From assembly GCA_037389465.1 (NCBI GenBank), contig JAZARR010000164.1:3424501-3488500 (forward strand): 64,000 bases of DNA, written 5' to 3'. The stretch's first letter is position 1. Each line of letters begins with the position of its first letter. The notes beneath the pieces were generated by a model. It made no database searches and was not told the origin of the DNA. It was given only the letters and a program-made list of their open reading frames with translations. The translations under genes and the position numbers were made by a program. The DNA comes from Baylisascaris procyonis. Its lineage: Eukaryota; Nematoda; Chromadorea; Rhabditida; Ascarididae. Shown here one piece after another: positions 50,065-56,600 of this stretch.

Positions 50065-53000
50065 CTATTCATGATTGGGCGTTGCATATGGTGCATAGGC
50101 ACGTGGACGATCACCATGAAGTGCTAAGCGTGCGGAAAAACGGAATGAGCCTGAAATGCGCTATTTTATGCAAACAACAAAGATTTTCTATTACCCCTAC
50201 TGTTGACACAGACAAATTCTTATGACATATTTCTGCTTATATGATATGCAGCTATCGCATTTGTAAAACATCACCAATCCCATCACAGATGTTCGAATCG
50301 TGTTTCCTCATTTAATTAAGCATATGTACCTGAAAGACCTGTTCCCGAGTCCCAAGACTTATATAACTTTCCCAAATTATTTGGTTGGATGCAGCAATGA
50401 GATTGGGGAACGTATTAATCGAGGAGGGTCAGATTGGCCAATTTAAACACTAGCTTTTTGGGAGGAACCTATAATCGAAGGCGAATGTCGATTGGATGGA
50501 AAATATAATTTTGTAGAATGAATTCAACAATGAAGAATTACCGTTTTCACCCCAAGTAGTGCCCCAGTTGTTGTAAGCGATGAATATTGTTTCGTTGTCG
50601 ACCATATCCCACCCGATTACCTTGACATGGTAGCGAAACAATTCATTCGTATAACTCCTTGATAATGGTTCGTAAATACCTTCAAAATTGTTCATACACT
50701 CAACTTCAATCCTCCATTTTCGATTTTCATTAAATGCAAATTTTCATCGCCTAACTGTGCGAATCGATAATTACCATATGAATAATGGAGAGCAGAAATG
50801 AATGGCATTTAAATATTTATAGTGATCAAGAAATCGAACATTTAGTCAGATTTCGCATAATTTGAGTCGAACATTGCAACGATGAGGTGCTAAGTAGCAT
50901 TCACTAATGCTTTAAGAACGAACGAATTCCATATTCGATAATGTAAAAATAATGTAAAATTCACTTTTAATGCAATATTATTTCGCAATTTTCACTTTTC
51001 AACCTGCTCAACGTCTTCACATCAATCGAAAAAAAAAGGACAGAAAATGGCAATACCACTTCTATAAAGAAAGAAATCGTCATAGATAAGCAGATCCATT
51101 GAGATCGGACCACGAAGGAAAAGTTCTTTCTTGACTAAATCAAGCCATTTCGCATCGTCTATGTAGATTTGTCGACGCACAATTTCACCACGATCCCACG
51201 ATTTTGCACGTCGTTCACTGATCACCGTCTTTTGTATCAGATTTACGTAATCACCTAAGAATTTGTTGTATCGAATCCTGAATATTTGAAATATTCACGA
51301 AGATAGAATATCCCCACTTATATTCTCAAAAGAAGCAGCAAAAAAAAAAACCGAATTTCACAGCCCTGCAACAATCTCGCTTCAAAGTAAAAAAAAAGAC
51401 GTTGCCTGAGCTATCTATACTTTAACTGTTTCATCGCTTCCATCCTAACTGCAACCGAGATTGTTATCTCTGTTTTTCAGTCGTTTACTATGCCATTATT
51501 TAGACAATTACTTCCCTGAAGAAAACAAAACGGTCACCCATTGCAGTCATACGCTATAATAGGTTGTCCCTCTCGGTAGATTCCAAGTTTCAACAACGAA
51601 ACACACTTACTAATACATTGACCTGATTTGGAGCAGTTACCGAAATAAGGCAACTAATAGGACGATTAATTACTGCATTAAACATCAACAGTGCGGTAAT
51701 TTGGATGTCTTCTTATGGATTTCACCTAAACTTCACAAAAAAAGTTTGATATACCCAGCAAGGTGCAAATATGCTCCTGAGGTCTCTAAAAAAAACCCAA
51801 CGATGCTAGATCTCAAAAACGCAGACGTTTCGATTTCCCCTCGATAATGATCTAAATTGAGCCATTTCAGCGCATAAAGCAAATTCTTCTACCATAATGA
51901 ACATTGGTCTGCGTTCGATCGTAAATGTCGAGATATCGATGTTCAGGATTGAGACATTCACTATGACACGGTTTTATATGCAAACGTAACTGGCGATCGG
52001 CCTTTTTCACCATCGATAACGGACACGGGGATCCGCAATTGGTTTCAATTGACGAAAATAGACCATCTGATGGTTGACACATCTCTGCAAATGCATCCCC
52101 TCGAGTTCAAACTTCTACCAATCTTTGCCATGCTTTCCTAATTAATTTTCTTTTAAATGTTTTTTTCTTTTGCGTTAATATAATGAAAGGAACATTTAAA
52201 AATACATTCACTGAATTCCGACGTAATTGTATGAGAGGGATTTATCGTTTCCTATTGGTTACAACGGTTGGTTGTAGGTGAGTTCGAGCCAGACTCCCTG
52301 GCACCCTCCTATCGAGTTACTCTGCCCAGTACTCTCATCCATACGAAGGCATTGGGTTAAATTTCGACCCTCCTGCTGAGCGATACAACAGTGAATCGTC
52401 TCGTGAGCATCCGATGAGTAGGAGACGAGCCCAAGCCATAATCTTTAAGCGACCTTACAAATTTTCCTCTCAAGTGAAAATTGAAATGATAGGAAGTGAC
52501 ATTTATTCGTAATGAATCTTTTGTTGATTTCAGCAGAAGTAAAAGTATGAGAGGGCAATGCTCATATACTGTATTTCCTGGAATTAAATGCTCATAAAAA
52601 TTCAACATAGTTGTGAAAGCTTTACTGTGAAGACATCGAGTCATCTTAAAAAGTAATGCCGACTGAAGGGAGCACCTTGCTGGCTACTATTCCTCCTAAG
52701 CACTACATCCACGACTAGAATCAGAAAATGTCCAACTTCAGACGTGGAACGCCACATGGGCAGCTGACTTCTTATGTGAGGCGCATCTTCACCAAACAGT
52801 TAGAAACGACCTATGCTGTCACCGAGGGCTCATGTTAACGAATTGGGTTTTATATTGTAGAATGCACTCTTCCAGTCGTGGTTCTGAACTTGCATTAGCA
52901 CAACGTTAGCACAACGCTCAGACGTTTCTCCATTCACCACGCTGAAGGAAACTATGGCAGTGCTGGGGAGCATCTTCATCACATACCTGTTGTGATGCCA

Positions 53001-54497
53001 TACTTAACCCAGTAGATGTAAACAGCCTCGGGGTTTCCTCCTCGACATCCACCACACTCTTGGCAGCACGTTAACAAGTGGAACATTGACAATCTCATCT
53101 TCTCTTCACCATTTGAAGCTATGCATATGCGATCCTCAATGGTCGATAAAGTCGACAACAGCTGTAAACTTGTGCTATTATCATATTTAGGACAGAACGA
53201 AATGGAAATCGCCTTCTTCTTTATCCAGTCCCCTACCATCACCCATACTTGCGCATACTGTTATACTTTTTGCTTCCTTTTCCTCCACCCAGCTTTCGAT
53301 CCCTTTCCCTTATCACCCATACTTGCGCATACTGTTATACTTTTTGCTTCCTTTTCCTCCACCCAGCTTTCGACCCCTTTCCCTTCTTCTCTCAGAACCA
53401 TGATGCCCTTGATTATAATTATTACCTATTCGATTATGTTAGAATGGCTGAAGGACAGCAAACTCTCACCAAATGAAACATCTTGCACATGCTTAATAAC
53501 AGAAGCACAGAGGGATAAAATCTTTCTGTATTCCGAAAATCCTGTCAACTCGGCAGGAAATCATCCAATGCTTCCGTTGATCCTAAATTCTGTTTGGGCG
53601 ATGATCGAGTATCACGCGCTCCGACGACTCTAAGCATACTGTCAAATTTCTTTATTATGAATGCATGAAAAGCAACGAATGAAATAATTACAGTACGCAA
53701 ACAACTACAAGCCTTACATATTTCACTCACCCAGTAATTCCAGCATGCACCTTGATCGTAAACCTTAGCGGTTGAAGAACGACACAATGGCCAATGTTCA
53801 CGAGCATCAAAATGTTGCGCTACAGATGGCGGAATATGGAATTTCGTTAGCATATCGATGATCAATTGGTAATTATCACGTGCATGAAACGTCGATGCAT
53901 AGATTCGCTCGAATTCACCTTGATACTGACAGTAACAACTTTTTATTGAAGTGATAAATTGAAACGGTGGAAAGAAAAGCCATTGTTTGATTTCAAATAG
54001 ATAGGCAGTTTCCTGCGTAATTTTCATCACTGAATTAACTGATAGAGTTTTTGCTTGAATGAGACTCTCAGAAGTTTCTTATCGTTTTGATTAGGTGATT
54101 TTACAAGTTCATCTGATCTTCTGATTGATCATTGCACTTATGACAGTCAAAGGGCTATAGAATTTTCTTGGGCATCTTTTATAAAACCCACTGGAGCCAT
54201 GGAAGGATGGATTTTTGCTTTTTACAACAGCATTCGACTGTACCGGCGAGCTGTGATATTAGAGCTGTCGTCCAGGGGTACTTCTGGCAAGCGAAAGAGA
54301 ATGGGTGAGGATGATGGACAAGAAGCATATTAACTGTTAACGCAATAATGCTAACCGCAGTTGACGAGTAATTTTCTGCCTTACGAACCTCGACTCCATA
54401 CTCGGCCAGTTCTCTCCTTTGAAAGGCGTTCGCGTTCGGTTCAGCCTTAAAATAAACTTGTTCAGGAAAATGCGCCCTAAGGACGGCCATTGTTTCA
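50065..54497 (-). CDS. Cathepsin B-like cysteine peptidase homologue, probably catalytically dead
   Basis: Minus-strand exons: 54497-54389 (tentative propeptide), 53925-53731, 53161-52987, 52084-51893, 51254-51057, 50679-50542 and 50150-50065. The last six give 984 bases, 327 residues plus stop, without a frame break. The propeptide contains AHFPEQVYFKAEPNANAF. The mature start is FDAREHWPLC. Then come VYDQGACWNYW, a split STIEDRICIASNGEE, CGGCRGGNPEAVYIYW, a Cys-rich region (NCGSPCPLS...KPCHSEC), GPISMDLLIYDDFFLYRSG, YHVKVIGWD and YNNWGTTWGENG, ending SARLALHGDRPRAYAPYA. Aligned to DQGSCGSCWAFG of active enzymes, the catalytic Cys is Tyr. At GHAVKIIGW the His position reads Tyr or is displaced by one. 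The oxyanion Gln and the Asn of the NSW motif (here NNW) remain. The His-His pair of the occluding loop is missing. Such Cys-less homologues usually act by binding rather than cleavage; that role is inference. The signal peptide and first exon are unresolved. Confidence 0.88.
52246..52548 (+). repeat. Interspersed repeat family, copy 2
   Basis: This shares the central block (CGATGAGTAGGAGACGAGCC) and the tail (TTCGTAATGAATCTTTTGTTG) with the copies at 21.9 kb and 59.3 kb, and is the most diverged of the three. It sits in the intron of the cathepsin-like gene between the exons at 52084 and 52987. A B-box-like GAGTTCGAGCC near its left end hints at a pol III-type head, but no full tRNA fold is visible. 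Confidence 0.75.
53239..53390. repeat. Tandem duplication, 74-base period
   Basis: Two nearly identical copies (53239-53312 and 53313-53386) begin TCACCCATACTTGCGCATAC and include a pyrimidine-rich end. They lie in an intron of the cathepsin-like gene. The very low divergence indicates a recent duplication. Confidence 0.95.
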
Positions 54498-54766: not shown

Positions 54767-55360
54767 TTAATTAGGATCCATAATGTTCGCACTCACCCAC
54801 ACATGAATCAGGAAATTCTTGTGGCAGAAGGTATACAAACCCTTTATATTATACCTCTTTGAACACATTTTACCGCAACAAAAGAACCACCATCGGGTAA
54901 GGATGCTGATTGGCAGTTTGCGATTGCGTATTGCGCAGCATAATGGTTGTTGCCGTGCTTCATTATAGTATGCCATTCTCTCACGCATTTCTTATTTGTC
55001 TTCTAAACAACACAGATCTTCCAAACGTTATTCTACATTGAGCGCGGCGTTAGCCACTATCATATAAAAGCATCGTGAACAACTAGCCAATCGGTATTAA
55101 TGTTTGCGGCAGAAAATAAATAAGGAAAGGTCATCAAATGAGCGGACTGCTTCGTTCAAGAACACAAGAAATACGAACTATCCAACGTCTTTCTGCCTTT
55201 ATTCTTTCGATTAATTGCGAGAAATATATCAGTGTTGGACTATTTGGCGGTGGATTCGACGATGCATGAAAGAGCTCCTTCAAGAAGATCGAGACAGCGA
55301 TTGTCAATAAAACAACGAACGAAGCCGTCCCCACCTTAATTAAAAACAAACGTTATTCGA
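54767..55360 (-). other. Possible 5' exons of the cathepsin-like gene
   Basis: Two open stretches on the same strand precede the propeptide exon. One, near 55250-55350, encodes a hydrophobic TASFVVLLTIAVSIFLKEL followed by FSQLIERIKAERRWI, which resembles a signal anchor plus propeptide helix. The other, 54988-54852, starts with ATG and ends at a phase-2 donor (AAAGAG/GTATAA) that fits the entry phase of the next exon, but encodes a Cys/Arg-rich segment without a signal. I cannot decide which, if either, belongs to the gene. Confidence 0.3.
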
Positions 55361-56384: not shown

Positions 56385-56600
56385 ACGGACAACCATAATA
56401 CAACAACGAAGTGAGCTTATTGGTGTCCCGCCCAAAAATGACAACGTTGTGCGTCGACTTCTCGTGACGTTACGCTTATCAACTTCAGTGTCGGGCTCTT
56501 CTGAATCCGGACCTGACGTCAGTGCTTCGTTACATTCCAAAGATTCCCTCATTCCAACTTTGATTGTTAAATACGCATTCCAACCTCTGAAAGCACATTG
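56385..56600 (-). CDS. Candidate terminal exon, unknown protein
   Basis: The minus-strand frame ends at a stop codon at about 56382 and encodes RESLECNEALTSGPDSEEP, then DTEVDKRNVTRSRRTTLSF and LGGTPISSLRCCIMVVR. The sequence is charged and protein-like. An acceptor-like TGTGCTTTCAG lies at about 56590. The opposite strand is also open over the same bases, which weakens the case. The family is not recognised. Confidence 0.27.

What the first reader, a model, noticed from the sequence alone, without database searches (positions are those of the whole stretch)
50065..53925. Intact cathepsin B-like gene that has lost its catalytic dyad
Six consecutive exons keep one frame to a stop (984 bases), so this is not a decayed pseudogene. 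Yet the residue aligned with the catalytic Cys of DQGSCGSCW is Tyr in DQGACWNYW. With the GW anchor aligned without gaps, the catalytic His position of GHAVKIIGW is Tyr (YHVKVIGW), with a His one place later. Fold-defining residues (FDAR..WP.C, DQG, CGGCRGG, the Asn of NNW, WGENG) remain. The His-His of the occluding loop is absent. Purifying selection on a dead protease implies a non-enzymatic role such as inhibitor trapping, adhesion or host interaction.
Basis: partly seen in the sequence, partly recalled or inferred. Interest (0 to 1): 0.8.

Follow-up and report, generated by a model that had tools for sequence, protein, structure and literature searches.

The report
Membrane-anchored dead cathepsin B, roundworms
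An ascarid roundworm gene makes what looks like a membrane-tethered relative of the protein-cutting enzyme cathepsin B that has lost its cutting residues, yet related worms preserve it, so it probably works by binding something rather than by cutting.

Summary
On the minus strand, six exons (53925-50065, 984 bases) encode a cathepsin B fold with Tyr at the catalytic Cys and Tyr at the catalytic His, while 12 cysteines align with those of active relatives. No second close copy was found in its 272.8 Mb genome. Orthologues in Toxocara, Parascaris, Anisakis and Dracunculus have Tyr at the Cys position (5 of 5 covering proteins). The longest invariant run, NELFRYHVK, covers the former catalytic His. 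Over the comparable half it diverges no faster than an active secreted cathepsin B. Anchor, CG.PC motif, insert, introns and tree place it beside a nematode-wide anchored family with an intact active site; overall identity does not (33% to the anchored paralogue, 37% to the secreted one). The missing His-His is common to the 19 active anchored proteins examined, so it is not part of the loss. Likely role: tethered binding or scaffold protein; classical inhibitor trapping is less likely. Expression, partner and codon-level selection are untested.

The parts
56394..56552 (-). Exon 1: start ATG, hydrophilic tail (residues 1-49) and start of the membrane segment
   Evidence: homologous to T. canis P0001 and Parascaris P0002 N-termini
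55179..55334 (-). Exon 2: rest of the membrane segment (about residues 54-72), stalk and start of the pro-like segment
   Evidence: mean hydropathy up to 2.40 over 19 residues
54356..54445 (-). Exon 3: pro-like segment AEPNANAFQRRELAEYGVEVRKAENYSSTA with a sequon (Asn130) invariant in the five dead-family rows of A2
53731..53925 (-). Exon 4: end of the pro-like segment, FDAREHWPLC, DQGACWNYW
53734..53736 (-). Tyr199 codon at the catalytic Cys position
52987..53161 (-). Exon 5: continues directly after the active-site Trp; DRICIASNG, CCQECGGCRGG
   Evidence: intron position and phase shared with the active anchored paralogue and L042
51893..52084 (-). Exon 6: CQPS, NCGSPC (no occluding-loop His-His), CHSEC, NPEHRYLDIYDR
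51057..51254 (-). Exon 7: insert relative to secreted cathepsin B (27 residues here, 23 in the active anchored paralogue), WLDLVKKE, DDFFLYRSG
50542..50679 (-). Exon 8: NELFRYHVKVIGW, NETIF sequon, NNWGTTWGEN
50630..50632 (-). Tyr405 codon at the catalytic His position
50065..50150 (-). Exon 9: C-terminus GSFRFSARLALHGDRPRAYAPYATPNHE and stop
   Evidence: a 29-residue stretch is 86% identical to the T. canis end

Best explanation
The gene encodes a type II membrane-anchored pseudo-cathepsin B of spirurine nematodes. It most likely arose from a nematode-wide family of membrane-anchored cathepsin B enzymes, changed heavily along one long stem branch, and then became constrained. It folds through the cathepsin B disulfides and does not cut. 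The remodelled former active site and neighbouring loops form a binding or scaffolding surface held at a membrane. Shown by sequence: intact frame, loss of both catalytic residues, hydrophobic N-terminal segment, orthologues, slow protein divergence, shared introns and motif. Inferred: absence of activity, topology, glycosylation, descent, binding role. Unknown: partner, tissue, whether the ectodomain is shed.
For: Intact nine-exon gene; no second close copy, the other 3 of 12 matches being weak, 35-44% identity. Tyr at the Cys position in 5 of 5 covering proteins from four species and at the His position in 2 of 2 covering proteins. Cathepsin half 264/292 identical to T. canis and 164/265 to Dracunculus, while tail and membrane segment are 49% and 61%, and 32% and 25%. 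Matched pair with Anisakis: dead protein 84/93 (90%), active secreted cathepsin B 81/91 (89%) over the same half. Longest invariant run in window, T. canis and Dracunculus is NELFRYHVK, at the lost His. 12 cysteines kept in alignment with active relatives. Dead clade 100/100 with a stem of 2.64 changes per column and short tips. CG.PC motif as in 19 of 19 active anchored proteins. Introns after the active-site Trp and in SG|IY shared with the active anchored paralogue and L042, not with the secreted gene.
Against: No RNA, protein or binding data and no codon-level selection test. In the cathepsin half the window protein is slightly closer to the secreted enzyme of its genome (83/226, 37%) than to the anchored paralogue (86/260, 33%). 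AU tests do not reject the dead clade grouping with secreted cathepsin B and TINAG (p 0.133). Two window introns have no match in the active paralogue, one matches only if an alignment gap is moved, and the active paralogue shares one intron with the secreted gene that the window lacks. Stretches away from the lost His are nearly as conserved: WLDLVKKE is an invariant run of 8 and NVHYGDYVNLI has 10 of 11, as have the best windows over the His site; DQGACWNYWL has 8 of 10 against a mean of 59%. The structure model is of the T. canis orthologue and modest: mean pLDDT 61.2, pTM 0.63, 183 of 493 residues below 50.
Confidence: 0.68

Rival explanations
1. Inhibitor trap: the dead protein soaks up cystatin-type inhibitors and so spares active cysteine proteases.
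For: A dead Trichobilharzia cathepsin B paralogue (Cys29 to Gly) formed complexes with chicken cystatin (PMC7054455, abstract and 12 passages seen). The cathepsin fold is kept.
Against: There the nucleophile became Gly; here Gly-Ser-Cys becomes Trp-Asn-Tyr, and Arg-Tyr stands for Gly-His, which should crowd the cleft that cystatins enter (inference from recalled cathepsin B structure). In that paper only a small percentage bound, after overnight incubation, and complexes with human cystatins B and C were not seen.
Confidence: 0.12
2. Regulator of the active membrane-anchored cathepsin B paralogue, by pairing with it in the same membrane or competing for its processing or sorting. This is a special case of the binding role and overlaps with the best explanation.
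For: The same genome has an anchored paralogue with intact CGSCW and YGHCAK on C212 at about 4.931-4.942 Mb.
Against: Only 33% identity in the cathepsin half; no co-expression or dimer evidence.
Confidence: 0.2
3. An active enzyme with a displaced catalytic centre, for example using the His one place later.
For: His406 is conserved in window, T. canis and Dracunculus; the Gln of DQG and the Asn remain.
Against: The 12 cysteines of the cathepsin half all align with conserved cysteines of active relatives at disulfide positions (pairing recalled), so no spare nucleophilic Cys is left.
Confidence: 0.03
4. A recently dead gene that still happens to be open.
For: Loss of catalysis itself.
Against: Alike in Toxocara, Parascaris, Anisakis and Dracunculus.
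Confidence: 0.02

Closest known systems
Nematode membrane-anchored cathepsin B family (one member, from Aphelenchus, carries the C. elegans name Y65B4A.2)
   Same: N-terminal hydrophobic segment, W.A..N in the pro-like segment, CG.PC in place of the His-His loop, insert before the K[KR]E helix, several introns
   Different: Those keep the catalytic Cys (19 of 19 examined) and His (18 of 19; P0011 has a gap there); here both are Tyr
Secreted cathepsin B (C1A), for example own L043 and Anisakis P0010
   Same: Fold, cysteines, pro-segment intron; 37% identity in the cathepsin half
   Different: No comparable membrane segment in P0010, catalytic dyad and His-His loop present, no insert, active-site intron elsewhere
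Trichobilharzia regenti TrCB1.5/TrCB1.6 dead cathepsin B paralogues (PMC7054455)
   Same: Cathepsin B homologue with the catalytic Cys lost
   Different: Cys to Gly; no membrane anchor is mentioned in the passages seen
TINAG/TINAG-like (non-enzymatic cathepsin B homologues)
   Same: Catalytic Cys lost, fold kept
   Different: Ser at the Cys position and His kept in the three rows I took as TINAG-like, of which only P0014 is so named; held with the dead clade the tree is worse (AU p 0.039)

Membership tests
Catalytic cathepsin B (peptidase C1A) | Papain-like fold | tested here: met
Catalytic cathepsin B (peptidase C1A) | Catalytic Cys and His | tested here: not met
   Tyr199 and Tyr405
Catalytic cathepsin B (peptidase C1A) | Occluding loop with His-His | tested here: not met
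   NCGSPC there; same lack in 19 of 19 active anchored proteins
Catalytic cathepsin B (peptidase C1A) | Cysteines of the six disulfides | tested here: met
   12 cysteines in the cathepsin half, aligned with those of active relatives; the pairing itself is recalled
Nematode membrane-anchored cathepsin B lineage | N-terminal membrane segment after a hydrophilic tail | tested here: met
   Residues about 50-72; T. canis model helix 46-79, block means 90 and 93 for residues 51-70; 17 of 19 active rows have such a segment, P0018 and P0021 do not
Nematode membrane-anchored cathepsin B lineage | CG.PC motif in place of the His-His loop | tested here: met
   NCGSPC in the window, 19 of 19 active rows
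Nematode membrane-anchored cathepsin B lineage | Shared intron positions | tested here: met
   5 of 8 window introns match the active paralogue in position and phase; 2 of these 5 also occur in the secreted gene, 2 differ there, and 1 could not be judged there; 2 of 8 have no match and 1 depends on gap placement
Nematode membrane-anchored cathepsin B lineage | Common branch in a tree | tested here: inconclusive
   Split from secreted plus TINAG 99/95.7, but grouping with the secreted side is not rejected, AU p 0.133
Nematode membrane-anchored cathepsin B lineage | CGSC and GHC active site | tested here: not met
   CWNY and RYHV
TINAG/TINAG-like | Ser at the Cys position with His kept | tested here: not met
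   Tyr and Tyr
TINAG/TINAG-like | Extra N-terminal matrix-type domain (recalled) | tested here: inconclusive
   Only PF00112 found on the full 462-residue model, but in TINAG-like P0014 too the N-terminal match stayed below its cut-off
Inhibitor-trapping dead cathepsin B | Binds cystatin without cutting | not testable with these tools
   Needs protein

The most novel reading that the evidence does not exclude
The former active site has been rebuilt into a frozen ligand-binding surface on a membrane-tethered receptor or co-receptor, used by spirurine parasitic nematodes since at least the common ancestor of ascarids and Dracunculus. The dead catalytic region would then be the working part of the protein, not a relic.
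Probability: 0.28. Interest if true: 0.7.

Novelty: new variant of a known kind. Interest (0 to 1): 0.55.

Why it matters
Dead cathepsin B homologues are known. Eight full-text searches of the held open-access library (listings, of which one search showed 20 of 151) listed no title on a membrane-anchored one in nematodes, nor on the anchored active family beside it; most listed papers were not opened. A conserved ascarid protein that T. canis records name a cathepsin B-like proteinase gives a test case for how a protease fold becomes a binding protein, and it should not be counted as a digestive enzyme.

Tried and rejected
Alternative exon restoring CGSCW: no hit in the gene; the His pattern search was too loose to inform, 27 hits against 27.05 expected. 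TINAG membership: not supported by the residues at the catalytic positions, nor by the tree (AU p 0.039); the N-terminal domain test was inconclusive. Filarial orthologue of the dead protein: none among the hits, although filarial proteins of the active family are in the same database; absence of a hit is not proof of loss. Codon-level dN/dS: no orthologous DNA reachable. Expression: no transcript source reachable; P0006 looks like an unspliced genomic frame around exon 7, so it is not evidence of expression. Pfam's C1 propeptide model did not match the window protein, and was below its cut-off in active P0028 as well, so 'pro-like' rests on alignment. Ascaris suum intestinal peptidase paper (PMC4287503, 12 passages seen): one C01 peptidase, GS_06461, from perfusate; I could not link it to this gene. 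Neighbours: 8 of the 26 open frames of 110 residues or more listed were scanned, none above a Pfam cut-off. Literature: PMC3931558 lists Y65B4A.2 once as an untested candidate (passage seen); PMC6107103, 9 passages seen; all other papers only as search listings. On rechecking I lowered the best explanation from 0.72 to 0.68 and the novel case from 0.30 to 0.28, because of the 37% against 33% identity and the other equally conserved stretches.
Full report
What was checked. On the minus strand, exons 53925-53731, 53161-52987, 52084-51893, 51254-51057, 50679-50542 and 50150-50065 have GT..AG borders, sum to 984 bases and keep one frame to a stop. Pfam places the product in the papain family (106.4 bits, cut-off 20.7, full model), and the best 21 PDB rows are cathepsin B or cathepsin B-like (provisional model).

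The gene is longer than reported. Homologues found begin well before the first listed exon. Comparing them with the window showed three more exons, 56552-56394, 55334-55179 and 54445-54356. The full model has 1389 coding bases and 462 residues; a spliced alignment to Parascaris P0002 gave the same borders for the first six introns. Residues 1-49 are hydrophilic with basic residues before a hydrophobic segment at about 50-72 (mean hydropathy up to 2.40), which fits a type II membrane protein. Topology is inferred. The first three donors begin GTT, off the usual GTRAGT, so those joins rest on the orthologues and need RNA.

The dead site. DQGACWNYW aligns without gaps to DQG.CGSCW, so Gly, Ser, Cys become Trp, Asn, Tyr. 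FRYHVK aligns to YGHCAK of the anchored family or GGHAVK of secreted enzymes, so the catalytic His is Tyr and a His follows. The cathepsin half has 12 cysteines, all aligned with cysteines of the active relatives; the catalytic one is gone. No C-G-x-C-W coding pattern lies in the gene.

Orthologues and constraint. One search returned 11 proteins from 577 candidates. Five of them (two T. canis models, Parascaris, Dracunculus, Anisakis) cover the Cys site and all five have Tyr. The two that cover the His site (T. canis P0001, Dracunculus P0004) read FRYHVK as the window does. A sixth, P0006, is a fragment that covers neither. The profile search (14 proteins from 7026 candidates) added no further dead orthologue. 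Identity of the cathepsin half is 264/292 to T. canis, 213/229 to Parascaris (incomplete), 83/95 to Anisakis (incomplete) and 164/265 to Dracunculus; the tail is 49%, 71%, 40% and 32% in the same order. As a yardstick, the secreted active cathepsin B of the same genome (L043) and Anisakis P0010 are 81/91 identical over the first half and 201/242 over the mature part, against 84/93 for the dead protein over the first half. Across window, T. canis and Dracunculus, 159 of 271 cathepsin positions are invariant. The longest unbroken run is NELFRYHVK (9), at the former His; WLDLVKKE (8) is next, NVHYGDYVNLI has 10 of 11, and DQGACWNYWL has 8 of 10. So the former His region is among the most conserved parts, not uniquely so. 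This is protein-level evidence of purifying selection, not a dN/dS test.

Where it came from. A profile of three active anchored relatives (291 proteins at E 1e-20 or better among 7994 scored, 120 listed) found a nematode-wide family, with rows from Plectus, filariae, Gnathostoma and Pristionchus among others. I examined the first 20 listed rows less the fused P0030, that is 19. The catalytic Cys is present in 19 of 19, the His in 18 of 19 (P0011 has a gap), CG.PC in 19 of 19, and a membrane segment in 17 of 19 (not P0018 or P0021). One row, from Aphelenchus, is named after C. elegans Y65B4A.2; the C. elegans protein itself was not compared. CG.PC stands where cathepsin B has His-His, so that lack belongs to the anchored family, not to the loss of catalysis.

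The same genome holds an anchored paralogue with an intact site on C212, about 4,931,373-4,941,951 (NQGGCGSCW, YGHCAKLIGW; its first residues are not modelled). It also holds a third relative on C162 at about 1.30 Mb (L042) with CGACY and YWHVARLIGW. A search with the window protein found its own nine exons and three weak matches, so no second close copy. Of the window's 8 introns, 5 match the active paralogue in position and phase: two of these (pro segment, YG) also occur in the secreted gene; two (after the active-site Trp, SG|IY) do not; one (EN|G) could not be judged in the secreted model. The one after the Trp, YG, SG|IY and EN|G are in L042 too. One more (TT|E) matches only if a gap is moved, and two have no match. 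Conversely, the active paralogue and the secreted gene share an intron in CG|G that the window and L042 lack. The window protein has 27 residues, and the active paralogue 23, more than the secreted protein between the YG/FG site and the K-E helix.

The tree (39 rows, 282 columns) makes the five dead proteins one clade (100/100) on a stem of 2.64 changes per column, with tips of 0.016 to 0.5. Its neighbour is a plant-parasite group (P0040, P0043, P0045, P0064; 87/84, not starred) with intact sites and a hydrophobic stretch starting at residue 7-15 that may be an anchor or a signal peptide. These groups, L042 and the active anchored rows separate from secreted cathepsin B plus TINAG-like rows at 99/95.7. 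Against this, the data do not reject the dead clade grouping with the secreted side (AU p 0.133) or with L042 (p 0.319); dead plus the 14 anchored rows plus L042 without the plant-parasite group gave p 0.080, and dead plus TINAG-like p 0.039. Overall identity of the cathepsin half also leans the other way: 37% to the secreted protein, 33% to the anchored paralogue, 32% to L042. I therefore rest descent on anchor, CG.PC, insert and introns together with the tree, at about 0.75.

How it most likely works. A tethered, folded, non-cutting cathepsin B whose remodelled cleft region is held constant is best read as a binding or scaffold module. The trap model suggested for a Trichobilharzia paralogue (PMC7054455, abstract and passages) needs an accessible cleft; here small residues at the cleft are replaced by Trp, Tyr and Arg, so I give it 0.12. 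Pairing with the active anchored paralogue is possible (0.2) and overlaps with the binding role. No partner is shown.

Age and spread. T. canis (Ascaridomorpha), Gnathostoma and Dracunculus (Dracunculoidea) are all in Spirurina. Dead orthologues in Ascaridomorpha and Dracunculoidea put the loss at or before their common ancestor, unless it happened twice. None was seen in filariae within the reach.

Noticed in passing
L042 (G000:C162, about 1,300,500-1,306,500, minus strand): A third, strongly diverged cathepsin B relative with CGACY (Trp after the catalytic Cys is Tyr), His kept (YWHVARLIGW) and NSF for NSW; whether it is active or anchored is unknown.
   Followed up: partly
L040/L041 (G000:C212, about 4931373-4941951): Membrane-anchored cathepsin B paralogue with an intact active site; 19 of 19 relatives examined have CG.PC instead of the occluding-loop His-His, so typical cathepsin B exopeptidase action is doubtful (inference).
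   Followed up: partly
P0020 (Panagrolaimus): An anchored family member with CGSCY, the same Trp to Tyr change next to the catalytic Cys as in L042.
   Followed up: no
P0001 (Toxocara canis), residues about 105-166: The pro-like segment is present twice in tandem in this gene model; real exon duplication or annotation artefact.
   Followed up: no
window 53238-53385: Two tandem copies of a 74-base unit, 99% identical, in the intron between exons 4 and 5.
   Followed up: no
G000:C169:1402627-1503427: A cluster of papain-family matches on both strands, several with stops inside the match (introns or decay not distinguished).
   Followed up: no
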